A stretch of 64,000 bases of DNA, from NCBI RefSeq assembly GCF_030296575.1, contig NZ_AP027729.1, positions 1,798,001 through 1,862,000 of the forward strand, read 5' to 3'. Positions 7,616 to 61,484 of the stretch are shown here, piece after piece (the stretch's first letter is position 1; each line of letters begins with the position of its first letter). The stretch is from Paraoerskovia sediminicola (GTDB taxonomy: Bacteria > Actinomycetota > Actinomycetes > Actinomycetales > Cellulomonadaceae). The position numbers and the translations under genes are program-made. The notes beneath the pieces were generated by a model. It ran no database searches, was not told where the DNA came from, and was given only the letters and a program-made list of their open reading frames with translations.

Positions 7616-8031
7616 ATCTCGGTCGCGGCCAGCGGCGAGGTGGAGACCCCGGGCGAGATCGGGCGGACCTCGGCCTCCAGGTCGTGCGCGAGCGAGGGCT
7701 CGGGGTCGGACCAGCCGCGGCCCTTGAGGTGCAGCACGGAGGCCAGTGCACCCACGGTCGCGGGGACGGTCGGTGAACCGGTCACTGTGCCGGTCGTCGT
7801 GCCGGTAGCACGATCGGTGTCGAGCGAGCGGGCGGTCGCTCCCTGGCTCGCAGTCACGACCTGCTGCCCGGCGCCGCTCGACGTGGCGCGCAGCACGAGG
7901 CCGACGGTCACGGCCGCGGTCAGGCCGAAGGTCGCCAGCGCGAGTCCGGTGTACCAGAACGCAGCCAGGAGGCCGACGGTGGTCCCGCCGATCACCGCTA
8001 CGCCGGTGCCGCTCCACAGGATGCGGCTCAT
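7600..8031 (-). CDS. Hypothetical membrane protein with two transmembrane segments
   Basis: I do not recognise this 143-residue protein. Two hydrophobic segments lie near the N-terminus (VAVIGGTTVGLLAAFWYTG and LALATFGLTAAVTVGLVLRA), followed by a polar, Thr/Gly-rich linker and a C-terminal part (SDPEPSLAHDLEAEVRPIS). The ATG at 8031 is preceded by a GGGGGA purine run. It is divergent from the MerR gene and convergent with the phosphatase gene. No family assignment is offered. Confidence 0.65.
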   Translation of the reverse strand: MSRILWSGTGVAVIGGTTVGLLAAFWYTGLALATFGLTAAVTVGLVLRATSSGAGQQVVTASQGATARSLDTDRATGTTTGTVTGSPTVPATVGALASVLHLKGRGWSDPEPSLAHDLEAEVRPISPGVSTSPLAATEIRRGA

Positions 8032-8183
8032 GATTCCCCCAGGGTCGGAGTGGGTCGAGCTCGTCTCACCATCAAGAGAACGTGGTCGAAGGCGGTAGCG
8101 CACGCTCACGCGGGGTGAAACGGCACATCGTGACCGGATCGATAGGATCGGGCGGCACATCACACGACGGGAGCGCGCACGAC

Positions 8184-8630
8184 ATGGGTGACAGCTCGGG
8201 TGACAGCTCGGTCGTGGGACCCCGGGAGGTCCCGGCGGCGCAGGTGATGCAGATCGGCGAGGTCGCCGAGCGCACCGGCCTGTCGCTGCGGTCGATCCGC
8301 TACTACGAGGAGGTCGGTCTCGTCCTCCCGTCGGCGCGGTCGCACGGCGGGTACCGCCTGTACACGCCGGCCGACCTGCAGCGGTTCGGCGTCGTGATGG
8401 GCATGAAGCCCCTGGGCTTCTCCCTCGAGGAGATGCGCGACCTGCTGGGTGCGCTCGACGCGCTCGAGCAGGAGTCGGACGGCGCCGCGCGGGACGCGCT
8501 CCTGGCTCGGCTCGCGGAGTTCCACGCCCGGGCGGACGAGCGCTGCGCGTCGCTGCGCCGCAAGCTCGGTACGGCCGAGGCGCTGTCCGAGCGGCTCGGT
8601 GGACTGCTCGACGAGCACGGTCCGGTGTGA
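8184..8630 (+). CDS. MerR-family transcriptional regulator
   Basis: The protein has the MerR winged helix-turn-helix ([20 protein letters not shown], then [20 protein letters not shown]), with the typical [11 protein letters not shown] block and a C-terminal helical dimerisation region; 148 residues. A Cys sits in the ERCASL segment, but there is no clear metal-binding pair, so a redox or ligand-independent role cannot be separated. The ATG at 8184 was chosen because of GGGAG about 10 bases upstream; an in-frame upstream start is possible. The target is unknown, though the divergent membrane-protein gene and the downstream SulP gene are candidates. Confidence 0.85.
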
Positions 8631-8801
8631 CGGACGTCTCGCCGACACAACCCTGACGCGACGGTAGGGTTGGGCGCGGCCCGAGCTGCGCCGTCCGACA
8701 CCCACGCCGGACCGCGGCCCGTGCCACCCGCGCGGACGACCGCGCCCCAGACCTTCCCGGCGAACGCTCCCGGAGCCGCCGGACACCCAGGGTGACCGAT
8801 C

Positions 8802-10451
8802 GTGGCCGTGCGGACCGGCACGCGCGACGAGCACCCGCCCCGAACGGACGGAACTCGACATGGCCACCACGGCCCCCGCGCCCAGGCCGGCGCCCGCACC
8901 CCCGAGGCCGACACCGCCAACTCGGTGCTCGCCGCCCTCAAGTCCCCTCGCATGCTGCGCACGGAGGTCCTCGCCGGCCTCGTCGTCGCGCTCGCCCTGA
9001 TCCCCGAGGCGATCAGCTTCTCGATCATCGCGGGCGTCGACCCGCGCGTCGGGCTCTTCGCGTCGTTCACGATGGCGGTCTCGATCGCGTTCCTCGGCGG
9101 ACGCCCGGCGATGATCTCGGCCGCGACCGGAGCCATCGCGCTCGTCGTCGCGCCGGTCATGGCCGAGCACGGCTACGACTACCTGATCGCCACCGTCCTG
9201 CTCGGCGGCGTCATCCAGGTGCTGCTCGGCGTGCTCGGCGTCGCGAAGCTCATGCGGTTCATCCCGCGCTCGGTGATGGTGGGCTTCGTCAACGCGCTCG
9301 CGATCCTCATCTTCTCCGCCCAGCTGCCGCAGCTGATCGGCGTCCCGTGGCTCGTCTACCCGATGGTCGCCGTCGGCATCGCGATCATGGTCTACCTGCC
9401 GCGCGTGACCAAGGTGATCCCGGCCCCGCTGGTCGCGATCGTGCTGCTCACCGCGATCACGATCGCCGCGGCGGTCGCGGTCCCGAACGTCGGCGACGAG
9501 GGCGACCTGCCCGACAGCCTGCCCTCGCTGTTCGTCCCGGACGTGCCGCTGAACCTCGAGACGCTGAAGATCATCGGCCCCTACGCGGTCGCGATGGCGC
9601 TCGTCGGGCTCATGGAGTCGCTCATGACGGCCAAGCTCGTCGACGACGTCACCGACACCCACTCGAACAAGACCCGCGAGGCCTGGGGCCAGGGCGCCGC
9701 CAACGTCATCACCGGCTTCTTCGGCGGCATGGGTGGCTGCGCGATGATCGGCCAGACGATGATCAACGTGAAGGCCTCGGGTGCGCGCACCCGCATCTCG
9801 ACCTTCCTCGCCGGCGTGTTCCTGCTGATCCTGGTCGTCGGGCTCGGCGACATCGTCGGTCTCATCCCGATGGCGGCCCTGGTCGCCGTGATGATCATGG
9901 TGTCGGTCGGCACGTTCGACTGGCACTCGATCCGTCCCAGCACGCTGCGCCGCATGCCCAAGAGCGAGACGACCGTCATGGTCACGACGGTGATCGTCAC
10001 CGTCGCGACCGACAACCTCGCGATCGGCGTCGTCGTCGGCGTGGTGGTCGCCTCCGTGCTCTTCGCGCAGCGCGTCGCGCACTTCACGACCGTCACGCGC
10101 CTCGACCAGCCCGGTACCGGCGCCGGTATCGAGGGTGGCGCGGGCTCCGGCGACGGGACCGACTCCGGGTCCGGTGACGACGAGACGACCCGGGTGTACG
10201 CCGTCCGGGGCGAGCTCTTCTTCGCCTCCTCGAACGACCTCGTGTACCAGTTCGACTACGCCGGCGACCCCGACCGCGTCGTCATCGACATGACCGACGC
10301 GCACATCTGGGACGCCTCGACGGTCGCCACGCTCGACGCGATCACCCACAAGTACGCGTCCAAGGGCAAGTCCGTCGAGATCCGCGGCCTCAACGACGAC
10401 TCGGCGGAGCGCCACGGACGTCTCGCCGGGAACCTCGGCGGCGGGCACTGA
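8802..10451 (+). CDS. SulP-family anion transporter with STAS domain
   Basis: This is an inner-membrane anion permease (sulfate, bicarbonate or organic anions in known members). The long hydrophobic core begins [20 protein letters not shown], with the family motif [20 protein letters not shown], and [20 protein letters not shown] later. A C-terminal STAS domain follows a Gly/Asp/Ser linker ([28 protein letters not shown]). The open frame starts at GTG 8802. However, ATG 8860 reads [15 protein letters not shown] and joins the transporter frame if one C is added to CCCCC at 8899-8903. That may be the true start and would match the run-length pattern seen elsewhere in the window. Confidence 0.88.
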
Positions 10452-10477
10452 CCGTCCGGTCGGGCAACACTGAGGCG

Positions 10478-11684
<1,207 letters not shown>

Positions 11685-11728
11685 CCTGTGCCATAGGGCA
11701 GGACGCGACAGTTTGGCAGAATGGCCGG

Positions 11729-12304
11729 GTGCGAGACGGTACGACCGACCACTCGAGCCCCGCTGCCACGGCTGCGGGGACGCTGCCGTACGCCGTGCGT
11801 GGCGCCACGGAGGACGACCTCCAGGGCATCGCCGACGTCTACGAGCACTACGTGCGCGAGAGCACCGCGACCTTCGAGGAGGTCGCTCCGGACGTCGAGT
11901 TCTGGCGCGAGCGCATGGCGTCCACCTACGCCGAGGGCTGGCCGTTCGTCGTCGCGGTGGCGGACGACGGCCGGGTCGTCGGGTGGGCCTACGTCGGCTG
12001 GTGGAGGCCTCGCCCCGCGTACCGGTTCACGGTCGAGACCAGCATCTACCTCCTGCCCGAGACCGCGGGCCGAGGCATCGGCAGCGAGCTGCTCGAGCGT
12101 GTCGTCGAGGGCGCCGCCGCGGCGGGGGCCCGCGAGGCCGTCGCCGTGATCTCCAGCGGGGCGTCGCCCGCCTCGCGGAAGCTGCACGAGAAGCTCGGGT
12201 TCCGCGAGATCGGTCGGCTGACCGACGTCGGGTACAAGCACGGGCAGTGGCTCGACACCGCGATCATGCAGAAGCACCTGCGGCCGGGCTCCGACCACCT
12301 CTGA
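11729..12304 (+). CDS. GNAT-family N-acetyltransferase (phosphinothricin acetyltransferase-like)
   Basis: This transfers an acetyl group from acetyl-CoA to an amine. The 191-residue protein shows the N-terminal RGATEDDLQGIADVYEHYV block, then STATFEEVAPD typical of the Pat/Bar branch. The acetyl-CoA loop TAGRGIGSELLERVV and the C-terminal FREIGRLTDVGYKHGQWLDT also match that branch. GTG 11729 is the likely start, since the nearby ATG at 11721 is out of frame. Resistance to a glufosinate-like compound is known in some relatives; many others act on unknown amines. Confidence 0.88.
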   Translation: MRDGTTDHSSPAATAAGTLPYAVRGATEDDLQGIADVYEHYVRESTATFEEVAPDVEFWRERMASTYAEGWPFVVAVADDGRVVGWAYVGWWRPRPAYRFTVETSIYLLPETAGRGIGSELLERVVEGAAAAGAREAVAVISSGASPASRKLHEKLGFREIGRLTDVGYKHGQWLDTAIMQKHLRPGSDHL

Positions 12305-12463
12305 CCTGCACCGGCGCGCCGTCATCCGGAACAGAGTCGTCCACAGGCGCGGGGTCCGTCATGGCCGTCCCCAAGCCGCTGTCGCGGCGCGTCCCGCCCG
12401 GTGCTCGCGGCCCTAGCGTCCAGCGTCGTGGGTGCCGCCGGGGCGCCCGGGCAGGGGGACGAG

Positions 12464-13504
12464 ATGGTGTGCAGGACGACGGATTCGACGCGAGCGTCGG
12501 CGCTCCGGAAGCGGACGGTGACGGCCTGCTGCGCCGTGGCGGTCGTCGCCGGGGTGGTGACCGGTTGTGCCCTGGCCCCGATCTCCGCGGGCCAGGCGTC
12601 GGACGGCGAGAGCGAGGTGGGCTCGACCTCGTTCGGTTCTGCCGAGGACGGGGGCGGTGAAAGCTCCGCCGGCGGTGACGACGCAGACGGCTCGGAAGGC
12701 GCGGACGGCGGCTCGGACGGCGCTGGTGCAGCGGAGGGCGCAGACGCGGCCACGGTCGACCCGGTCCGCCTCAGCCGGCCAACGGTCGACGCGGGCGTCC
12801 GCTACTCGGACGAGCTGAGCGACGACGGGATCGGGCGCTACCGGCAGATCGAGCTGGCGGACGACGCGGAGCTGCTCGACGCGCAGTGGGCCATCGACGC
12901 GCTCGCCGACAACGACCCCGGGTGGGACGACTCCGACGTGTCGGCGGCCTACGCGACGGTGATGCGGTTCATGGTGTCCGAGGTGTTCGACTCAGTGCTC
13001 TCCGACAACCCGGCGCCCTCGGCGCAGGCCCGCTGGTTCGCGGAGAACAGCCACCGGTTCGACCCGACCATCCGCGACCAGGTCGAGGACGCGCTCGCCA
13101 CGGAACGTGCGGGAACGGTCGTCGTCGCGGCGAGCGAGGTCATGGGCCGCGGGACGCCGCGCTACTCCGACCGCGGTGGCCGCATCGACCGTGTCCTCGT
13201 GTCACCGACAGGGATCACCTGGGGCGAGGAGCAGGAGGCGCTCGGCTTCGACTTCGAGTCGACGTTCTCCCGGCCCGTCGAGACCTGGGGGCGCGACGCC
13301 TCCGAGCTCGTGACGGGGACGTTTACCTACTACGTGACCCGGCACGGCGAGGACTGGCTGATCGCGGGATGGCAGAACGACTACGGCACGACGACCTCGA
13401 CCATCGACACGAGCGAGGACCTGAGCGAGGACAGTGACGGCGAGGGCGCCGGGTCGGGTGGGCCGAGGAGCGGCGACGCGAGCCGGGGCAGGATGGTGGA
13501 GTGA
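12464..13504 (+). CDS. Hypothetical lipoprotein
   Basis: I do not recognise a family. The 346-residue product has a signal peptide ending in the lipobox VTGC (Cys35). A long acidic Gly/Ser/Asp linker follows (about residues 45-100), then a folded domain (YRQIELADDAELLDAQWAID ... GTFTYYVTRHGEDWLIAGWQ). The ATG at 12464 follows a GGGGGA purine run. It should be anchored on the outer face of the membrane. The DWLIAGWQNDYG block resembles the end of SnoaL/NTF2-like secreted domains, but this is only an impression. Confidence 0.75.
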   Translation: MVCRTTDSTRASALRKRTVTACCAVAVVAGVVTGCALAPISAGQASDGESEVGSTSFGSAEDGGGESSAGGDDADGSEGADGGSDGAGAAEGADAATVDPVRLSRPTVDAGVRYSDELSDDGIGRYRQIELADDAELLDAQWAIDALADNDPGWDDSDVSAAYATVMRFMVSEVFDSVLSDNPAPSAQARWFAENSHRFDPTIRDQVEDALATERAGTVVVAASEVMGRGTPRYSDRGGRIDRVLVSPTGITWGEEQEALGFDFESTFSRPVETWGRDASELVTGTFTYYVTRHGEDWLIAGWQNDYGTTTSTIDTSEDLSEDSDGEGAGSGGPRSGDASRGRMVE

Positions 13505-49399: not shown

Positions 49400-49420
49400 G
49401 TTGAGCCAGGTGTACTCAAC
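49400..49420. promoter_or_regulatory. HAIR-type HspR operator 1 upstream of dnaK
   Basis: GTTGAGC, 7 bases, ACTCAAC: one mismatch from a perfect inverted repeat of the HspR-associated form (CTTGAGT-N7-ACTCAAG). It is 61 bp right of the transposon end and 156 bp before dnaK, so the insertion left the heat-shock control region intact. Confidence 0.8.
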
Positions 49421-49463
49421 TTCGACCCCCAGGGACTTGCGCAGCGATTCGGCCCGGGTCTAG

Positions 49464-49484
49464 GTTGAGTGCAGCAGACTCAAC
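49464..49484. promoter_or_regulatory. HAIR-type HspR operator 2 upstream of dnaK
   Basis: GTTGAGT, 7 bases (GCAGCAG), ACTCAAC: a perfect inverted repeat, spaced 64 bp from operator 1. HspR is encoded at the end of this operon and represses it together with DnaK as co-repressor in known actinobacteria. Confidence 0.85.
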
Positions 49485-49575
49485 CGGCCCGCCGGGCGAG
49501 GCGCAGGGCATCCGCCCTGTCGCCCCGAAGTCCCCGGAGCAGGGCCCCTGCACCCGAACGATGGAGGAATCGAAC

Positions 49576-51449
<1,874 letters not shown>

Positions 51450-51453
<4 letters not shown>

Positions 51454-52154
51454 CGCCCGGCGACGCGAACCCCCACGAGGGGGAGCAGGGCTCGGACTCC
51501 GACGCCCCGTTCCACTTCACGGACAAGCGCAAGGTGGACCCGCAGTCGGGGCAGGCGCGCGAGAGCGCGTCCGCCCCGGCGGGGGACGCCGGCTCGGGCG
51601 AGCCCGTCGACCTGGGCGACGTCCCCGCCGAGCCGGTGTCGGACGACGTCCCAGCCGGCGAGGGGTCGGGTGACCCTCTCGAGGCGCTCGACTTCGAGCC
51701 CGAGGGTGAGGCCGCCGAGGACGCCGCGGTGATCGCCGCCAAGGCCGAGGCCGCACAGCACCTCGACTCCCTCCAGCGGGAGCGGGCGAGCTTCACGAAC
51801 TACCGCAACCGCGCCGTCCGCGACAACGCGAACGCTCGGACCCAGGGCACGCAGGACGTCCTGGCGGCGCTGCTCCCGGTGCTCGACGACATCGACCGGG
51901 CGCGTCAGCACGACGAGCTCTCGGGGCCGTTCGCGGCCATCGCCGAGAAGCTCACGGGCGCGCTCGAGAAGTTCGAGGTCGTGAAGTTCGGCGAGGTCGG
52001 CGAGGAGTTCGACCCGAACGTCCACGAGGCGCTCATGCACCGCACGGACGCCGAGGCCACGGCCTCGACCGTCGAGGTCGTCATCGAGCCGGGCTACCGG
52101 ATCGGTGAGCGGGTCGTACGTGCGGCCCGGGTCGGCGTGGTCGGCCCGGAGTAG
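51450..52154 (+). CDS. grpE: Nucleotide exchange factor GrpE
   Basis: This factor releases ADP from DnaK. The 234-residue protein has a long acidic, disordered N-terminal tail (about 100 residues, longer than in E. coli), then the coiled-coil dimer ([20 protein letters not shown]). The beta-domain includes [20 protein letters not shown] and the end [21 protein letters not shown] 51450 is coupled to the dnaK stop. Confidence 0.94.
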
Positions 52155-52206
52155 TCCCGGAGGCGGCCCGTGTAGGCCCGAGTAGCGCGCCGCGCGCGGC
52201 TCCGCT

Positions 52207-52290
52207 CCGCCGAACCGGTGGTCGTGGTCGATCCTGGACCTGGGATTGAGCACGACCGCCGGTTCGGCGGGCCGGGACCGCCGGTTCGGC
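52207..52290. repeat. Inverted and direct repeats between grpE and dnaJ
   Basis: CCGCCGAACCGGTGGTCGTG (52207-52226) pairs with 52251-52270 with one mismatch around a 24-base loop. GACCGCCGGTTCGGC within the second arm is repeated directly at 52276-52290. The 203-bp gap is unusually long for this operon. It could act as an attenuator or RNA-processing site that sets the DnaJ level; that is inference. Confidence 0.65.
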
Positions 52291-52357
52291 AGCGAGCCGC
52301 CGCGACCTGGTCGGTCGCGACGACGGATGAACCCAAGAACCACAGGATCGAGGAGCC

Positions 52358-53368
52358 GTGACCGGTCAGGACTGGATCGAGAAGGACTTCTACGCCGCGC
52401 TCGGCGTCCCCAAGGACGCCGACGACGCCACGCTGAAGAAGTCGTACCGCAAGCTGGCGCGCCAGTACCACCCCGACCAGAACCACGGCGACCCCAAGGC
52501 CGAGGAGAGGTTCAAGGAGATCGGCGAGGCCTACTCCGTCCTCTCGGACCGCGAGCAGCGCCAGCAGTACGACGCGATCCGGCAGATGGCCGGCGGCGGC
52601 GCCCGATTCGCTCCTGGCGCCGGCGGCGCGGGCGGGTTCGACGACCTGTTCGGCTCCATGTTCGGCGGCAGCCAGCAGCGCGCCCGCTACCAGGGCGCTC
52701 CCGGCGCGGGTGCGCGCGGGGCCCCGGGTGGGTTCGAGGACCTCCTTGGGGGGATGTTCGGCGGAGGCGGTGGCGGGTTCCGGCCCGGCGGTCCTGCCGG
52801 GTTCCAGGCGAACCCGACCCAGCGCGGGCAGGACGTCCGCGCCAACACCACGCTCCCGTTCCGCCAGGCGATCGAGGGCTCGACCGTCTCCCTGAACGTC
52901 GGCGGCCGCACCGTCACCGCCAAGTTCCCGCCCGGCGTGCACGACGGCCAGAAGATCCGCCTGCGCGGCAAGGGTCGGCCCGGCGTCAACGGCGGCCCTT
53001 CGGGAGACCTCGAGGTCACCGTCCGCGTGACCCCGCACCCCGTGTTCCGCGCCGACGGCCCCAACCTGCGGGCCGACCTCCCCGTCTCGTTCGCCGAGGC
53101 CGCGCTCGGCGCCACCGTCGAGGTCCCGACCTTCGACGGCCACACGGTGCGGGTCAAGATCCCGGCCGGGACGTCGTCCGGCAAGGTCTTGCGCGTCAAG
53201 GGCCGCGGGATTGTCACCCCGAAGCACACGGGTGACCTGCTGGTCACCGTCCAGGTGGCCGTTCCGCAGAAGCTCTCACGGCAGGCCAAGAAGGCCGTCG
53301 AGGCGTTCGCCGAGGCGACCGAGGACAAGGACGTGCGCGAGGAGTTCGCGCGACAGGCCGCACAGTGA
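52358..53368 (+). CDS. dnaJ: DnaJ-family co-chaperone without zinc finger
   Basis: This co-chaperone stimulates DnaK ATPase activity and delivers substrates. The J-domain is at residues 10-72, with the HPD motif at about 38-40 (QYHPDQN). A long Gly/Phe/Arg-rich region follows ([27 protein letters not shown]), then two beta-barrel substrate-binding domains. The Cys-rich zinc-finger of type I DnaJ is absent, so it is a type II (CbpA/DnaJ1-like) form, as usual for the DnaK operon in many actinobacteria. 336 residues from GTG 52358. Confidence 0.94.
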
Positions 53369-53442
53369 GCGTCTGAGCTCGGCAGGCGGTGGCCCGCAGG
53401 TGCCGCCAAGGTGAGCGACAGGTGACCCGGAAGGAGCAGGTG

Positions 53443-53865
53443 ATGATCGACGACGACGCACCGGTCCTCGCGATCTCGGAGGCCGCGGCGCTCGCGGGCA
53501 TGCACCCGCAGACGCTGCGGCAGTACGACCGGCTCGGCCTGGTCTCGCCCCGCCGGGCCGTGGGCCGCGGACGGCGGTACTCGCGCCGCGACGTCGGGCG
53601 CCTCCTGCAGATCCAGCACCTGAGCCAGGACGAGGGCATCAATCTCGCCGGGATCAAGCGGATCCTCGAGCTCGAGCGCCAGGTCGAGTTCCTCACGGGT
53701 GCGGTCGAGAAGCTCTACGCCCACGTCGAGACCGGGCGGCGCGTGTTCACCGCAGGCGCGGCCGGCGACGTGGTGGTCGCGCCCCGCGGACGGCGCCCCC
53801 GGCGTGAGTCGGGCGACCGCGCGTCGCTCGTGCTGTGGCGGCCGCCGTTCGACCCGCGGCACTGA
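53443..53865 (+). CDS. hspR: HspR, MerR-type repressor of the heat-shock operon
   Basis: This repressor binds the HAIR operators in front of dnaK and needs DnaK for full activity in known actinobacteria. The 140-residue protein has a MerR-type helix-turn-helix (LAISEAAALAGMHPQTLRQY, then DRLGLVSPRRAVGRGRRYSR) and a short coiled coil (NLAGIKRILELERQVEFLTG). A basic C-terminal tail follows. ATG 53443 is preferred because AAGGAG lies 6 bases upstream; GTG 53422 is an alternative. Confidence 0.93.
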   Translation: MIDDDAPVLAISEAAALAGMHPQTLRQYDRLGLVSPRRAVGRGRRYSRRDVGRLLQIQHLSQDEGINLAGIKRILELERQVEFLTGAVEKLYAHVETGRRVFTAGAAGDVVVAPRGRRPRRESGDRASLVLWRPPFDPRH

Positions 53866-53869
53866 CCGG

Positions 53870-54012
53870 CCTTCCGGGAGAGGGAAGCCTTTCCAAAGGA
53901 AAAGACATTCCGCAATAAAGGCGTTGCGCAATTCCCCGAATCATTCTTGGGGCAGCCTTTCCTTGCTATACAGAATTCACGCGCGGATTTATTCTGGAAT
54001 CACATTCCGACT
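53870..54012. promoter_or_regulatory. AT-rich control region before the DUF1540 gene
   Basis: This stretch is markedly AT-rich against a background above 70% GC (for example AGGAAAAGACATTCCGCAAT and GGATTTATTCTGGAATCACA). It contains a near-palindrome CTTTCCAAAGGAAAAG around 53889-53904 and a repeated AGCCTTTCC (also near 53956), plus TTGCTATACAG, which could be a -10 region. It suggests a strongly driven, regulated promoter; the regulator is unknown. Confidence 0.55.
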
Positions 54013-54024
54013 CCAGGAGGAACC

Positions 54025-54333
54025 ATGACCGCCCTCACCGAGCTGCCCCAGGTCGCCGAGTGCTCCATCGACGGATGCGGCTACAACCACGAGCACGGCT
54101 GCCACGCCGGCGCCGTCACGATCGCCGGGACCAGCGGTGACGCGGCCTGCGCGACGTTCATCCCGCTCTCCGAGAAGGGCGGCCTCGACAAGGTCGTCGC
54201 CCACGTCGGCGCCTGCCAGCGCGGCGAGTGCATCCACAACGACCACCTCGAGTGCGCGGCGCCGTCGATCCGCGTCGGCGCCGGCGCATCCAGCGACGAC
54301 CACGCCGACTGCCTGACGTTCGCGACAGCCTGA
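54025..54333 (+). CDS. DUF1540 protein (two Cys-rich units)
   Basis: The 102-residue protein has two Cys/His-rich DUF1540 units: CSIDGCGYNHEHGCHAGA ending AACATF, and CQRGECIHNDHLECAA ending ADCLTF. The cysteines could bind zinc or another metal. AGGAGG 5 bases before ATG 54025 is a very strong ribosome-binding site, and the AT-rich upstream region and following terminator suggest a separately expressed, abundant protein. Function is unknown; similar proteins are common in spore-forming and actinomycete genomes. Confidence 0.88.
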   Translation: MTALTELPQVAECSIDGCGYNHEHGCHAGAVTIAGTSGDAACATFIPLSEKGGLDKVVAHVGACQRGECIHNDHLECAAPSIRVGAGASSDDHADCLTFATA

Positions 54334-54427: not shown

Positions 54428-55192
54428 TCAGCGGCTGAGCTGGTCCAGCAGCGCCGCCGCACCCTGCGGCGAGGCGGGCAAGGGCTCGATCCAGACCCGC
54501 GGCGGCCGGCGGAGCACGGCGGTGACGCCCATGCGGACCCCGGTGCGCTCGATCGCGCGGCGGATCATGACGACGCGGTCCGCGGCCTCGAGGCGCGACC
54601 AGAGCGCGGCGTAGGAGCCGCTGCCGAGCGCAGCCATCGGGTGGCCGTCCCCGCAGGCCTCGGTCATCGCCGTGCCCATGGCGGCCTCGCGGGCGACGCG
54701 CAGCACGGTGGGTGCGTGGTCGACCGCGACGTCGACGACCACGAGACAGTGGGTGTGGGTGACCAGCGTCCCGCTGCGCCGGGCTTCGGCATACGTCTCG
54801 CGCAGGCGCTGCGAGAGGTAGGCGGTGGTGGGCAGGCCGGAACGCGGGTCCATGGTGCCGAGGGCGACCGGCTGCGTCTCTGCGCCCGCCGCCCACCCGG
54901 TGCTCAACGCGCGCAGGGTGCCCAGGTCGGGCTCGGCGCCGATGGTGCGGTACAGGCACGCCAGGTCGTCGATCGCCTCGCCGATGCTCACGCCCGCCTC
55001 GCCGCGCCCGTGACCCAGACGCTCTGCGGCGGCCTGGGCGCAGCGCGCCTCCACGAGGGCCTCGGTCAACGCGTCGACGGCGGGGTGGAACCAGTCGTCG
55101 GGGCGCAACCAGACGGACTCCACGGAGCGCGCACGCCACCGATCACGGACGCGCTCGGCGTCCGCCTCGTGGTGCTCGACGAGGAGGTCCAT
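54428..55192 (-). CDS. Degenerate GGDEF-like protein
   Basis: This 254-residue protein has a DPRSGLPTTAYLSQRLRETY segment like the DxLTGLxNR entry of GGDEF domains, and a following LVVVDVAVDHAPTVLRVARE strand. No GGDEF motif or metal Asp pair is visible, so it is unlikely to make cyclic di-GMP. The N-terminal part (RWRARSVESVWLRPDDWFHP) is unassigned. The start at ATG 55192 is preferred; the frame is open further upstream but would run into the divergent promoter. It is divergent from the sigma-factor gene and could take part in the same signalling, which is inference. Confidence 0.65.
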   Translation of the reverse strand: MDLLVEHHEADAERVRDRWRARSVESVWLRPDDWFHPAVDALTEALVEARCAQAAAERLGHGRGEAGVSIGEAIDDLACLYRTIGAEPDLGTLRALSTGWAAGAETQPVALGTMDPRSGLPTTAYLSQRLRETYAEARRSGTLVTHTHCLVVVDVAVDHAPTVLRVAREAAMGTAMTEACGDGHPMAALGSGSYAALWSRLEAADRVVMIRRAIERTGVRMGVTAVLRRPPRVWIEPLPASPQGAAALLDQLSR

Positions 55193-55383
55193 GCTGAAGA
55201 GACGACCGCGCACGGGATTCGTGACGCGGCCGGACGAAGTTTCTCGGGTGAGTTTTCGAGTCCGTTCTGCAACCCGGACGCTCTTCTCCCTGACGCAAAG
55301 GATCGTTACGATGGTGCGGTTGTAGAAGCATTCAGCGATTCCGGTGACGGGTCGAGGACCGGCGGTCATCGAGGACGGGGCGC

Positions 55384-58300
55384 GTGGCAGAGCCTGCGAG
55401 CGGCGAGACGAGCACGGTGTCGAGTGACGCCGAGCTGATCAGTGCTGCCCGGACGGGCGACCAGGCCGCCTTCGGGCAGCTCTACGAGCGCCACAGCGGC
55501 GCGGCGCTCGCCGTGGCCAGGCAGTACGCCCCGAGGCCCGCCGACGCCGACGACGTGGTGGCCGAGGCCTTCGCGAAGGTGATGGTCGTCCTCCAGGGGG
55601 CGGCGGCCCGGACGTCGCGTTCCGCGCCTACCTCTTCACCGTCGTCCGCCGCCTGTCCTACGACGCGGCCAAGGGCGCGCGGCGTACGTCCCCGACCGAC
55701 GAGATCGAGACGTTCGAGAGCGCGTTCGGCCCGATGGCCTCGACGGAGGAGCCGACGCTCGAGGGATTCGAGCGGACCACGGTCGCGCGCGCGTACGAGG
55801 GTCTGCCGGAGCGCTGGCGGTCCGTCCTCTGGTACGCCGAGGTCGAGAACATGACCCCGGCGCAGATCGCGCCGATGCTCGGGCTCACCGCGAACGGCGT
55901 CGCCGCACTCGCGTACCGGGCCCGCGAGGGTCTGCGCCAGGCGTACCTCCAGCAGCACCTGAGCTCGGCCGTATCGGCGGAGTGCGAGCGCGCCAACGGG
56001 CTGCTCGGCTCCTACGTCAGGGGTGGCCTCGCGAAGCGCGAGACCGCAGTCGTGGAGTCCCACCTGGAGGACTGCTCGGAGTGCCGGGCGCTCGTGCTCG
56101 AGCTCGGCGACGTGTCGCAGGGCATGCGTGGCATCGTCGCGCCGCTGGTCCTCGGGCTCGGCGCGATCGGGCTCGTCGGCGCCGGGTTCCCGATCGGTGG
56201 CGCCGCGGTCGGCGCTGCTGCTGCGGGTGGCTCGGGGAGCGCAGGCTCCGGGACCGGAGCGGCAGGTTCCGGGTCGGCCGGTTCCGGCGCAGCTGCGGGG
56301 AGCGCGGGCACGGCGGGAAGCACGGGCGCCGTGGGCGCCGGAGCGGGGGCTGCCGGCACAGCGACAGCTGGCGCGGCCGCCGGGGCAGCCGGAACTGCGG
56401 GCGTGGCAGGGCTGGTCGGCGCCGGGAGCGCGGTCGGCGCCGCAGGCGGCTTCGCCGCGATGATCGCGGCCGCCCCGTTCGCGGCGGCGCTCATCGCCGT
56501 CGGAGCTCTCGCGGTGGTCGGCGTCGGTGTGGTCGTCGGGATCAACGCCTTGTCGGACGACGACGCACCCGGTCAGCAGGTCGCGTCCGGAAGCCAGGAG
56601 GCGGGTCAGGACGACGCCGGCGGCGCCGGTGGCACGGACGGCAGCGGCAGCACGGACGGTGCTGACGGGACCATGGGCGGGGCCACCGACGACGCGACGT
56701 CCGACTCGGGGTCGGACGATGCGACGTCCGACGCCGGCGACACCCCTACGTCCGACGCGGACGGCGCCGTGACTGGCTCCGGAGCTGTGGACGACCCGAC
56801 CTCGCCCACGAACATCCCACCGGCCCTGGCCAGCGGTCCGACGGCCGAGCAGCCCGCCGGGACGGCAGGGTCCGGCGCGGGCTCGACCGATGGCACGTCC
56901 TCTGCGGGTGGGACCGGCGGGACGGACGGCACCGACGTGCCCGCGCCGCCTGTGGTGGTGCCTCCGGTGGTGGTCCCGCCGACGCCGGCCTCTCTCGACC
57001 TGCAGATCGACGACTCGATCACCCTCGAGGCGCGCCAGGCGCAGAATCTCGTGGTGAGCGCGGTGAACTCCGGCGGGACGAGCGCGTCGGGTGTCTCCGT
57101 GGAGGTCGTCCTCCCGCCGGGGGTCGACTCGCCGTCGTCCGCGGCGATCAGCGGCGGGACGTCGGTCCCGGGGACGCTCTCGATGGCCGAGGTGCCGTGC
57201 GGCCGCCCGGACTCGGACGACCTCACGGTCGCCCGGACGGTGACGTGCGCGCTCGGGACGATCGGTCCGGGCGACTCTGCGGGCGTGTCGGTGCGGGTGC
57301 GCGCGGACTCGGGCGGCGAGTACGCGTTCGCGGCGCGCGCGTGGGGCACGGGCATCGATCGGGTCGAGCGTCGGTTCGCCCCGACCCGGGTCGCGTACTG
57401 GGGCGGGGAGGTCGCCGTCGCGCTCGATGCGCCGGGCGGGACCCTCGGCAACCCGGGTTCGGCCACTGCCACCCTGAAGCTCAGGAACAGCGGGGACCGA
57501 GCGGTCGACGACGCCGCGGTGACGCTCGCGGTCCCGGCGGGCCTCGAGCTGGTGTCGGCCGGGGGCGACTGGGACTGCGACAGCGGCTCGGGGGCCGTGG
57601 ACTGCTCGACGTCCGGGGAGCTCGGCCGCGGCGAGGTCAGGTCCGGGACGTTGCGCCTGGTGTCGGCGATCGACGAGTCCGGTGACACAGCGACCCCGAC
57701 GGGTGACGTCGTGGTGCACGCGGCGGCGCGCGCGGTGCAGGCGACGGGGTCCCGCGCCGGCCAGACGGTCACGGACAGCGACGACAGGTCGTTCAGGTTC
57801 GCGGAGCCCTGGGGCGGTACGGGGTCCGGGTCCGGTGTCGTCGCACCCTGCGTCCCCGAGTCGGACGGCGAGCCCGCGAGCTCGGCCGTTGCGCTCGACG
57901 GACCGCTGCGCAACGCGTCGATGCTCCCTCTCACGGCGACTCTCGTGGGTTCGACCCTCGAGGACAGCGCGACGGCGCTCATCGCCGCCGGGGAGAGCGC
58001 AGAACTCTCGATCGACACCGGGATCCTCCGCGCTGCAGGCGACGCGAGCCTCGAGCTGCGTCAGTCGGTGGGGTCGCGCACCTACACCAGAGTCCTCGAC
58101 GGCATCGGCGAGTACTCGGCCTGCGACCTTCGCCCGCAGGTCGACGTTCAGGCGACCGAGGGCCTCGAGCTCGCGGCACGCGAGGCCTCAATGCTCGAGC
58201 TCGCGGTCTCGAACGCGGGTGGGACCTCAGCGGTAGCCGTCGAGACCGAGGTCGTGATCCCCGCCGGCGTAAACACTCCCTCTTCCGCCATGGTCAGCGG

Positions 58301-61300
58301 CGGCGCGTCGGTCGCCGGCGCGCTCACCGTCGCCGAGGTCCAGTGCGGCCGTGCCTCGTCCGACGACGTCACGGTCGCCCGCACGGTGACGTGTGCCGCC
58401 GGCACGATCGAGCCCGGCGAGACCACCGAGCTGTCGGTCCCCGTCACCGCGGCCTCGGGCGGCGAGTACGTGTTCGCCTCCAGCACCAGCGGCACGGGGT
58501 TCCCGACGGTCGAGCGGCAGTTCCGCGCCACCGCGAGCTACTGGGGTGCGGACCTCGGGCTCGTGCTCGACGGGCCCGGCTCCGTCGTCGCGAACCCCGG
58601 CACGGCCGACGTCGCGATGACGCTCGCGAACCGTGGTGACCGCGCTGCGGGCGAGGTCGACGTCGAGGTCACGGTCCCGGACGGGTTCGGTCTCTACGGC
58701 GCGGACGGCGATTGGTCGTGCGAGCCCGGTGACGGGACCGTCGAGTGCGCCTCGGACGGCATCGGCGTCGGGAAGTCCCGCACCGGCACGCTGCACCTCG
58801 TGACGCTCGGCGACGGGCGTGACGGTGCGAGCGGGGACACGCTCGCGGCCGGCGGCGCGGCGGAGATCAGCGCAGACGCGGTGGCGACCGAGGTGTCCCC
58901 TGCAGGCCCCGAGGTCGACGCGCGCGACAGCGTGTCCTTCGACGTCGAGGACGCCTGGGGCGCTGTCGGCGAGGTGCAGGCGCAGAGCGTGTGCCTCCTG
59001 GACGCGGAGCCGGGTGCCGTGCGCTCCGCCATCGCCCTCGGCGTGCCGGGGGCGGAGGGGTCGCTGACGAATTCGTCGGTCGCGCCCTACGAGGCCACCC
59101 TGATCGGTTCCGGCCCCGAGCAGCGGGCGTCGGCGACCCTCGACGAGGGCCAGAGCGCGGACCTCACGATCGACACGGGGCTCGGCCACGCCGCCGGCGA
59201 CGCCCGGCTCGAGCTGCGCCGCGACGTCCGCGTCGGTGACGCGACCCGGTCGTTCCTCCGGGACATCGAGGCCGGGTCGTTCGAGGCGTGCGACGCCTTC
59301 GCGCCCGACGTCGAGACCCCCGAGTTCTCCGCCGAGCTGCGCGACGTCGACGGCGAGAAGATCGTCGTCCTGGGGGCGACCTTCGCGAACACCACGGAGG
59401 CCGACCTCCAGGTCTGGTTCGGGGACACGTCGTCCGCCACCGTCGTCGCCGCCGGCGAGAAGGTCTCGCTCGAACGAACGACCGACTCAGCGACCTATGA
59501 GGGAACGCCAGAGATCGGGTACCGCTGGGTCGACGACGCGGCGCACGGCGGCGACCACGGGACGGACCACACGATCACGGCCGCCGAGGCGCTCCACGCC
59601 GCGTACGCGCCGGAGGCCACCGTCGAACCCGGCGCGTGCACCTGGGACCCCGCGACCGGCGCGTCGGGCACCGAGGTCACGATCACCCTGGACAACTCCG
59701 CGTCGACGTTCCCGGCCGAGTTCGAGTACTCGATCGGCTCCGGGGACGTCGAGTCGGTCGACGTCCCGGCCGGGTCGGGCGCCGGGAGCGACCCGGAGGC
59801 GTCGGTCGTCGTCGTGCACCTGACGGCCGGGGCTGCCGGCGCGACGTTGTCCGTGAGCGCGGACGGCACGCGGCTCGCGGTCGAGGAAATCCCCGAGGCC
59901 TCGTGCGTCCCGTGGATCACCGACGTCGCGACGCCCACCGTCCAGTGCAGCGACGACGGGTTCGTCGTCGTCACCGGGACGCTCGAGAACGACGGTGCCG
60001 CCCGCATCCGGGCGCTCGCCCTGACCAACGTGCGGCTCTCCCCGGGGGCCGACCCGACGCACTACCAGCAGGCCGTGGACCTCGACCCGGGGGCGACCGG
60101 GACGTACCGGCTCGTGACCGGGGCCAGGTCGCTCGACGCGGGCCAGACGGTCGTCGTCGGCCAGACGGTCCTGCCGTTCAGCCTCGGGCTCAAGCTCCCC
60201 GGAGACGACCGGCCCAAGGCCGACACGACCGAGGGCATCGACTGCATGCCGTGGATCACCGCGGACGCGATCCCGGCCCCGACGCTCGAGTGCACGGCCG
60301 ACGGGTACGCCGTGATCGTGGGGTCCGTCGAGAACGCGTCCGGCGTGCCGATGCGCGCGCTCCCGTTCGCGAACGTCTGGGTCGCGGACAAGGAGCGCAG
60401 CGTCCACTACCAGCAGCACATCAAGCTCCCCGTGGGTTCCGGGGAGGTCGGCTACCGGCTCGTCACGGACGCGCGCACGGTGAAGGCCGGCCAAGTGGTG
60501 ACCGTCGACCAGTGGTTCACGGACGGGTCCGGGACCCGCAACCCCGACCGGCCCCGGGTCAGCACCGAGTCCGGCATCGACTGCTCACCGGCGCCCTCGG
60601 CGGAGCTCGTGCTCGGACCCGTCGCGTTCGACAAGAGCGCCTCGCGGACCATGCAGGACGCCACGGTCAGGCTTCGCAACGACAGCGCCGACGGAGTCAC
60701 CATCGACCTTTCCGTGACCGGCGCCGACCTCGCGAGCCCCGTCGAGAGCACGCTGGGTGCCGACGAGTCCGCCGACGTCCCCGTGCGGTTCGGTACCGAC
60801 GGCACGTCGGTCACGGTGACGTCGGGCGAGTGGACGACGACGCTCGAGGCCCCGGCGTTCGTCGCGCCCTGCCTGCCGGCGTGGGTCCAGTCGCAGTGGT
60901 GGCGACCGGTCACCTACGCCAAGGGGTCCGCGGTGTCGGACGACGGGGCGAACTACGTGGCGACGAAGAAGTCCTACGGTGTCCTCCCGCCGTCGCACGA
61001 CGTCCAGGTCCTGTTCGCCGCGTGGACCCGGGTGGAGCCGTGCCGGGGCGCGGACGCGCAGGACGCGGCGCGTGCCCCTCAGGGCGAGGAGTCGAGCGAG
61101 CCGGATGCAAAACTCGAGCCGTCAGAGCAACCCGGCACGGGCGAGCAGCCGCGCACGCGCGAGGAGCAGAAGAGCACGAACGAGCCGGCGCCGTCATCCG
61201 GCTCCGCGAGGACCACGCCGTCCCCGACAGCGACCACGGAGCCCAGGACGGAGCCGACCGCGGAAGGCGCGGCGCAGCCGACCTCTGATCCCACCGCCGA

Positions 61301-61484
61301 GCCGAGCCCGACCGAGGGGTCGACGACCGAGCCGTCATCGAAGCGGTCGTCGTCCGGGCAGGCTGCCACCCCGGACGCCAAGGCCACGCCGTCGCAGAGC
61401 GCCACCCCGAAGCAGAGCGCGACGCCGGACCCGACGGCGTCGACGTCCCGCAGCCGTGACCGGGGCGCCTGGGCTCGCGACTGA
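55384..61484 (+). CDS. ECF sigma factor fused to zinc anti-sigma motif, membrane segments and extracellular repeats (frameshifted as given)
   Basis: Read across a lost base at GGGGG 55596-55600, this is one protein of about 2,033 residues. Order: sigma region 2 (about 17-90: LISAARTGDQAAFGQLYERH; DVAFRAYLFTVVRRLSYDAA after correction); region 4 (about 137-193: LPERWRSVLWYAEVENMTPA, LTANGVAALAYRAREGLRQA); a zinc anti-sigma HxxxCxxC motif (SHLEDCSECRAL, about 225-236); a hydrophobic segment; a Gly/Ala/Ser linker; and a membrane helix (AALIAVGALAVVGVGVVVGI, about 365-385). Then comes an acidic linker, two copies of a roughly 380-residue beta-rich module, twin PWIT repeats, a Trp-rich YAKGSAVSDDGANYVATKKS module like CBM5/12 (about 1836-1886), and a Thr/Pro/Ser tail. 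It would hold a sigma factor at the membrane until an outside signal, perhaps a polysaccharide, releases it by proteolysis. Domain calls for sigma and zinc motif are firm; the CBM call is moderate. Confidence 0.8.

What the first reader, a model, noticed from the sequence alone, without database searches (positions are those of the whole stretch)
55384..61484. One-polypeptide transmembrane sigma factor with a possible carbohydrate-binding sensor
A single gene joins an ECF sigma factor (regions 2 and 4), a zinc anti-sigma motif (HxxxCxxC), membrane segments, about 1,500 residues of probable extracellular sequence and a C-terminal CBM5/12-like module. In Clostridium, separate SigI and RsgI proteins do this job with carbohydrate-binding domains on RsgI; here all parts are in one chain, implying release of the sigma by proteolysis. 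I recall that actinobacterial ECF groups with fused C-terminal extensions have been noted, so the novelty is in the size and the putative polysaccharide sensor.
Basis: partly seen in the sequence, partly recalled or inferred. Interest (0 to 1): 0.85.

Follow-up and report, generated by a model that had tools for sequence, protein, structure and literature searches.

The report
Membrane-tethered sigma factor with sugar-binding tail
This gene encodes one very long protein that joins a gene-switching sigma factor to its own inhibitor, a membrane anchor and an outside stalk tipped by a chitin-binding-type fold; the design was already known from Streptomyces, but I also find a likely dedicated promoter next to it that points to the few genes it switches on.

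Summary
A sigma region 2 frame (55384 to about 55599) and a 1916-aa frame (55734-61484: region 4, zinc anti-sigma domain, one strong membrane helix, about 1,300 residues of Ig-like/DUF11 domains, C-terminal CBM5/12-type module) form one gene in the relatives; the frame break is private to this assembly. The module's fold is confirmed (profile E 1.7e-8 and AF2/Foldseek to the ChiC chitin-binding domain), but the exposed tryptophan pair of ChiC is not conserved, so its ligand is open.

The architecture is not new: ECF52 (SCO4117) sigma factors are described as sigma-zinc finger-TM-carbohydrate-module fusions, with release by proteolysis already proposed. New here are a CBM5/12 tip, the ~2,000-aa size, and a pattern: the same cytoplasmic part carries different sugar-binding tips by lineage (NPCBM, ricin-B, CBM5/12).

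I also found a candidate cognate promoter: GCGTCAT-N17-STCTCAT, usually 3-5 nt before the start of the divergent neighbour, in 74/75 loci. It occurs 0-4 times per genome, upstream of GGDEF-like, EAL and GerE genes. In Cellulomonas, remote sites occur in 46/50 genomes with the sigma and 0/10 without (not corrected for phylogeny). The window genome has exactly two sites.

The parts
55384..55599 (+). Start of the sigma fusion: ECF sigma region 2 (first reading frame, up to the frame break)
   Evidence: PF04542 1.7e-6; tblastn of relatives in this frame up to 55599
55592..55614 (+). Frame break, one base short; intact in all congeners examined
55614..55940 (+). Rest of region 2, linker and sigma region 4 (second frame; longest ATG ORF begins 55734)
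   Evidence: PF08281 1.1e-5; tblastn 74-84% identity to congeners
55983..56087 (+). Zinc anti-sigma domain, Cys...HxxxCxxC (zf-HC2)
   Evidence: PF13490 1.2e-7; the Cys, His, Cys, Cys columns are invariant in 14 relatives
56124..56183 (+). Conserved MRGIVAPLVLGLGAIGLVGA segment; likely sigma-contacting helix, possibly membrane-associated
   Evidence: R, P, L, G invariant; K/E/R/H inside it in Demequina and some Cellulomonas
56445..56549 (+). Transmembrane helix
   Evidence: Kyte-Doolittle peak 2.72 in the window, 1.9-3.0 in nearly all relatives
56574..56993 (+). Acidic Gly/Ser/Thr/Pro linker without Lys or Arg, outside by the positive-inside rule
   Evidence: composition
56994..60863 (+). About 1,290 residues of Ig-like domains (DUF11/CARDB-like) with recurring cysteines
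   Evidence: PF01345 2.1e-12, 4 stretches; cysteine positions
60864..61046 (+). C-terminal CBM5/12-type module
   Evidence: A2 profile to ChiC ChBD 2d49 E=1.7e-8; AF2 pLDDT 93, best PDB match 2d49 TM 0.67/0.75
61047..61481 (+). Ser/Thr/Pro/Glu-rich tail
   Evidence: composition
55197..55227 (-). Candidate cognate ECF promoter GCGTCAC-N17-GTCTCTT of the divergent gene, 4 nt before its ATG
   Evidence: motif in 74/75 loci; one of only two exact sites for this variant in the window genome
54428..55192 (-). Divergent neighbour, degenerate GGDEF-like protein (254 aa), candidate target gene
   Evidence: homologue beside the sigma gene in 17/17 loci; profile to GGDEF proteins in PDB E=7.2e-5; GGDEF motif absent

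Best explanation
It is a membrane-tethered ECF sigma factor with its own inhibitor built in. The sigma domain and a zinc anti-sigma domain lie in the cytoplasm, one helix crosses the membrane, and a stalk of Ig-like domains reaches outside and ends in a CBM5/12-type module. A contact or stress sensed outside leads to cleavage (site-1, then intramembrane; inferred, as proposed for ECF52), which frees the sigma domain. The free sigma then fires a very small regulon from promoters of the form GCGTCAT-N17-STCTCAT. In this genome that means the divergent GGDEF-like gene and a small GerE/LuxR-type regulator. In relatives it also means EAL-domain and HATPase genes, and in a Microbacteriaceae-like relative the sigma gene itself. 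Shown by computation: the domains, their fusion in relatives, the fold of the tip, the promoter motif, its position and its co-occurrence with the sigma. Inferred: topology, proteolysis, the signal, and recognition of the motif by this sigma.
For: Domains and fusion. The AF2 model of the sigma/anti-sigma part best matches sigmaE from the sigmaE-RseA complex. Tip. Lineage-specific sugar-binding tips on one chassis: NPCBM 4.7e-30 in the Streptomyces-like ECF52-type protein, ricin-B lectin 5.2e-9 and 2.1e-7 elsewhere. Promoter: 74/75 loci within 2 mismatches against 4/1500 shuffled regions, 3-5 nt before the start codon in 70/74; 132/222 family genomes with hits and none for the reversed pattern; target genes; remote sites in 46/50 Cellulomonas genomes with the sigma and 0/10 without; the motif also lies beside the sigma fusion in Nocardioidaceae-like and Microbacteriaceae-like genomes, and in L180 both facing sites share the same altered -35 (GCGTAAT), one of them 2 nt before the sigma gene's own ATG.
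Against: No experiment. The motif is absent beside the Streptomyces-like ECF52-type genes and the f21 loci that have the fusion, so it is not universal for the clade. Four fragmented sigma-negative Cellulomonas assemblies still hold a motif site. The co-occurrence count is not corrected for phylogeny. The CBM module lacks the ChiC tryptophan pair. The number of membrane helices is inferred from hydropathy alone.
Confidence: 0.6

Rival explanations
1. The conserved 31-bp element is the binding site or promoter of another regulator (for example the GerE protein found in the regulon, acting on TCAT repeats), and the sigma fusion is only a neighbour.
For: The two half-sites share TCAT. GerE genes are among the targets. 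Some genomes have the fusion without the motif.
Against: The right half ends 3-5 nt before leaderless start codons, where a -10 element belongs, with a fixed 17-bp spacer. Sites are missing together with the sigma gene in Cellulomonas. A Microbacteriaceae-like relative has the same altered -35 on the sigma gene's own promoter and on the divergent one.
Confidence: 0.27
2. The frame break is genuine and this strain's sigma factor is dead.
For: The break is in the assembled sequence.
Against: Assembly completeness is 87.6% against 98-99% in congeners; the 1,900 codons downstream stay open; the neighbour's promoter is kept. A programmed shift is not needed, because relatives are in frame.
Confidence: 0.1
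3. The outside part is a cell-wall anchor or mechanical stalk, and the signal is envelope stress rather than a sugar.
For: The aromatic binding residues of ChiC are not conserved; most of the length is Ig-like repeats; some members end in a DUF3344-like domain rather than a known CBM.
Against: Different lineages carry different sugar-binding folds at the same place.
Confidence: 0.4
4. Both hydrophobic segments span the membrane, so the long C-terminal part is cytoplasmic.
For: The first segment scores 1.5-2.4 on Kyte-Doolittle.
Against: An acidic linker without Lys/Arg follows the second helix, cysteines recur in the repeats, the tips are secreted-type sugar-binding folds, and the first segment carries charges in several lineages.
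Confidence: 0.06

Closest known systems
ECF52 sigma factors (SCO4117 of Streptomyces coelicolor)
   Same: One chain: ECF sigma, zf-HC2 zinc finger, TM, long extension, C-terminal carbohydrate-binding module; Actinobacteria; proteolytic release proposed (PMC5826349, PMC8999054).
   Different: The tip is CBM5/12 rather than NPCBM; the stalk is Ig-like domains rather than a Pro-rich linker; about 2,030 aa against about 650-700 in the Streptomyces-like loci read here; the GCGTCAT-N17-STCTCAT motif is absent beside those genes and differs from the CSGYN-17-SRHA motif reported for SCO4117.
ECF53 and ECF48 sigma factors
   Same: C-terminal fused anti-sigma and TM extension, predicted proteolytic activation; some ECF52/53 members have glycosyl hydrolase or carbohydrate-binding domains (PMC8999054, PMC10766802).
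   Different: No reference sequence could be compared here.
Clostridium SigI/RsgI systems
   Same: Outside carbohydrate-binding domain coupled to a sigma factor across the membrane (general knowledge).
   Different: Two separate proteins and a non-ECF sigma; RsgI has no zinc anti-sigma domain (general knowledge, not tested).
IutY of Pseudomonas putida (ECF243)
   Same: Sigma fused to a membrane anti-sigma and released by Prc/RseP proteolysis (PMC8999054).
   Different: Iron-siderophore cell-surface signalling; no zinc finger or CBM tip described there.

Membership tests
ECF52 | ECF sigma domain with regions 2 and 4 in one chain | tested here: met
   27/27 relatives; the window copy is split by a frame break
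ECF52 | zf-HC2 zinc finger after the sigma domain | tested here: met
   PF13490 1.2e-7; C/H/C/C invariant
ECF52 | Transmembrane region | tested here: met
   hydropathy 2.72 peak; number of helices not settled
ECF52 | Proline-rich extension | tested here: inconclusive
   Acidic Ser/Thr/Pro linker present, but most of the extension is Ig-like domains
ECF52 | C-terminal carbohydrate-binding domain (smart00776/NPCBM in SCO4117) | tested here: not met
   The NPCBM type is absent; a CBM5/12-type module stands in its place
ECF52 | Assignment by the ECF group HMMs or phylogeny | tested here: inconclusive
   Lies with the Streptomyces-like ECF52-type proteins in a supported clade of fused sigmas, on a separate branch from them; the official HMMs are not available
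CBM family 5/12 | Sequence profile and fold of the family | tested here: met
   Family profile to 2d49 1.7e-8; AF2 and Foldseek to 2d49; the window copy alone gives no Pfam hit
CBM family 5/12 | Exposed aromatic pair that binds chitin in ChiC (role recalled, not tested) | tested here: not met
   The aligned residues are Lys-Lys in the window and Asn-Gly/Ser in most members
Diguanylate cyclase (divergent neighbour) | GGDEF catalytic motif | tested here: not met
   LGSGSY in the window, LGGGAF in relatives; profile relationship to GGDEF proteins 7.2e-5

The most novel reading that the evidence does not exclude
A conserved actinobacterial module couples the cell surface to a cyclic-dinucleotide-like regulatory circuit: a membrane-tethered ECF sigma with an exchangeable sugar-binding tip drives, from one dedicated and unusually conserved promoter (GCGTCAT-N17-STCTCAT), a regulon of one to four genes built of degenerate GGDEF, EAL and GerE proteins.
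Probability: 0.5. Interest if true: 0.7.

Novelty: new variant of a known kind. Interest (0 to 1): 0.52.

Why it matters
Fused ECF52-type sigma factors have been known for a decade, but the only studied member I found (SCO4117) has a pleiotropic phenotype, and its promoter motif was inferred from knockout data without biochemical proof. Here a near-invariant promoter with one to four sites per genome gives a direct reporter for the signal, so the ligand and the release step become testable in cultured Cellulomonadaceae. The swapping of NPCBM, ricin-B and CBM5/12 tips on one chassis is an argument that these proteins read surface or environmental polysaccharides.

Tried and rejected
Programmed -1 frameshifting at the break: rejected, because relatives encode the same protein in one frame and the site does not fit the X XXY YYZ form. 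Pfam for the CBM in the window copy alone: no hit even at E 10, so a family profile and fold were used. NCBIfam: only general ECF sigma models pass. The flagellar FliA promoter form (CTCA-N15-GCCGAT, from memory) was considered for the motif: a few GerE-gene sites contain GCCGAT, but most sites do not. Class-wide use of the strict pattern: outside the family most hits look like background (52/346 genomes), so the link there rests on sites beside the sigma gene. The first full-length search of the own genome failed on the tool's side.

Full report
What is there. The first holds the front half of an ECF region 2; the second holds region 4, zf-HC2 and four DUF11 stretches. Proteins of three congeners align across the break in two adjacent frames with nearly consecutive residues. 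In those congeners (L053 Cellulomonas sp. PhB143, L047 Sediminihabitans luteus, L064 Paraoerskovia marina) the whole protein is one frame of about 1,560-1,625 aa. S. luteus reads ...VVLQGGGGPDVAFRAYLF exactly at the place of the break. The window's assembly is 87.6% complete against 98-99% for its congeners. I take the break as an assembly error, with a small chance of a true mutation.

The chassis. Twenty-seven complete relatives all carry Sigma70_r2, Sigma70_r4_2 and zf-HC2. The zinc-finger Cys, His, Cys and Cys are invariant. An AF2 model of the sigma plus anti-sigma part (mean pLDDT 67) matches sigmaE of the sigmaE-RseA complex best. After the zinc finger comes a conserved MRxxxxPLVLG segment, then a Gly/Ala-rich stretch, then one strong hydrophobic helix in essentially every member. 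The first segment is too conserved in sequence, and too often charged, to be a plain membrane helix; I read it as the sigma-contacting helix of the anti-sigma domain (inference). The sequence after the strong helix is acidic, without Lys or Arg, and cysteines recur through the repeats. This favours an outside C-terminus.

The tip. The last folded stretch of the window protein (60864-61046) has no Pfam match alone. A profile of 20 related tips finds the chitin-binding domain of Streptomyces griseus chitinase C (2d49) at 1.7e-8, and 10 of 20 members match Pfam CBM_5_12 on their own. The AF2 model of the window's own module has pLDDT 93, and its best PDB match is again 2d49. The tryptophan pair of ChiC (...AKWWTQ...), which I recall as the chitin-binding residues, is not kept: the window has Lys-Lys there and most relatives have Asn-Gly or Asn-Ser. 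So the fold is a CBM5/12; the ligand cannot be named.

Distribution. 202 of 222 genomes of the family have a match to the sigma4/anti-sigma part, many of them orthologues at 62-86% identity in frames of about 900-2,100 codons. In the class, 164 of 346 genomes have a match at E <= 1e-15. Among these, genomes of 6-11 Mb (Streptomyces-like by size) carry the ECF52 layout with an NPCBM tip (4.7e-30); others carry ricin-B lectin tips or a DUF3344-like end. A tree of the cytoplasmic part places the window protein with its congeners, inside a Cellulomonadaceae plus Demequina clade, within a larger supported clade that also holds the Streptomyces-like proteins (the window row includes a stretch before the break that is out of frame, so its branch length is inflated).

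Known or not. ECF52 is described in the literature as ECF sigma, zinc finger, TM, Pro-rich extension and carbohydrate-binding domain, with SCO4117 as the studied member; activation through the carbohydrate module and a proteolytic cascade is already proposed (PMC5826349; PMC8999054). A review notes that some ECF52/53 members have glycosyl hydrolase or carbohydrate-binding domains, without experimental validation (PMC10766802).

A candidate promoter and regulon. The gene divergent from the sigma fusion (54428-55192, minus) is present in 17 of 17 loci compared, and recognisably in three further families. It is a degenerate GGDEF protein: its profile's best matches in the PDB are GGDEF-domain proteins (best 7.2e-5), while the GGDEF motif itself is lost. 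Between the two genes, on the minus strand, lies GCGTCAT-N17-STCTCAT. It is found with at most 2 mismatches in 74 of 75 loci (51 of them perfect), against 4 of 1500 shuffled regions, and ends 3-5 nt before the start codon in 70 of 74. That is the layout of a leaderless ECF promoter. Over the family, 132 of 222 genomes have at least one strict site, typically one to three (at most four), and the reversed pattern has none.

The genes behind the sites fall into few classes: the GGDEF-like neighbour, EAL-domain proteins, 77-aa GerE/LuxR-type proteins and RsbW-like HATPase proteins. In the window genome the variant GCGTCAY-N17-STCTYWT occurs exactly twice: before the divergent gene and before a GerE-type protein.

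Is the motif this sigma's? I used the genus g4 (Cellulomonas), where most sites are far from the sigma gene. I counted only sites not adjacent to the sigma and, for the cleaner count, only assemblies of at most 120 contigs. 46 of 50 genomes with the sigma have a site; 0 of 10 without it do (Fisher 1.3e-8; all assemblies: 55 of 63 against 4 of 19). Absence of the sigma in most of these was checked with a full sigma/anti-sigma model. The counts were transcribed by hand and are not corrected for phylogeny. Independent support: the motif also lies beside the fusion in Nocardioidaceae-like genomes and in family f29, and in a Microbacteriaceae-like genome (L180) both facing promoters have the same altered -35, GCGTAAT, one of them 2 nt before the sigma gene's own ATG, which suggests autoregulation. 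Against it: the Streptomyces-like ECF52-type loci and the f21 loci lack the motif.

Verdict. An ECF52-like, membrane-tethered, self-inhibited sigma factor, best filed as a new variant of a known kind because the NPCBM tip of SCO4117 is replaced by a CBM5/12 and the formal ECF-group test could not be run. The part that goes beyond the literature I could reach is the candidate promoter and its small GGDEF/EAL/GerE regulon.

Noticed in passing
window 49405-53865 (+): A dnaK - grpE-like - DnaJ/CbpA-like - HspR/MerR-like heat-shock cluster lies just upstream, and its synteny with the sigma fusion is kept in 14 of 17 related loci.
   Followed up: no
window 53947-54333 (+): A small Cys-rich DUF1540-like protein between the heat-shock cluster and the sigma locus, conserved in 10 of 17 loci (the family name is from memory).
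   Followed up: no
L234 (window genome C1:1756970, +): A one-mismatch site (GAGTCAT-N17-GTCTCAT) precedes a gene for an 81-aa small membrane protein; possibly a third regulon member.
   Followed up: partly
L266, L268, L270, L271 and L265, L267, L269 (Nocardioidaceae-like genomes): The same promoter precedes two uncharacterised genes (about 193 aa and 190-199 aa), the first leaderless, 4 nt after the motif.
   Followed up: partly
L064 (Paraoerskovia marina), within 8001-12872: The extracellular part contains a long run of PTTD repeats in the middle of the Ig-like domains.
   Followed up: no
L094, L106, L126 and others: Cellulomonas and Demequina members end in a conserved NSLGVDAK.F...GD.YL.G domain (DUF3344-like in a relative, L174), not a CBM5/12: a different tip on the same chassis.
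   Followed up: partly
window genome: Twelve CBM5/12 copies occur in other open frames of the genome, probably in secreted chitinases or cellulases, which could be checked as indirect targets.
   Followed up: no
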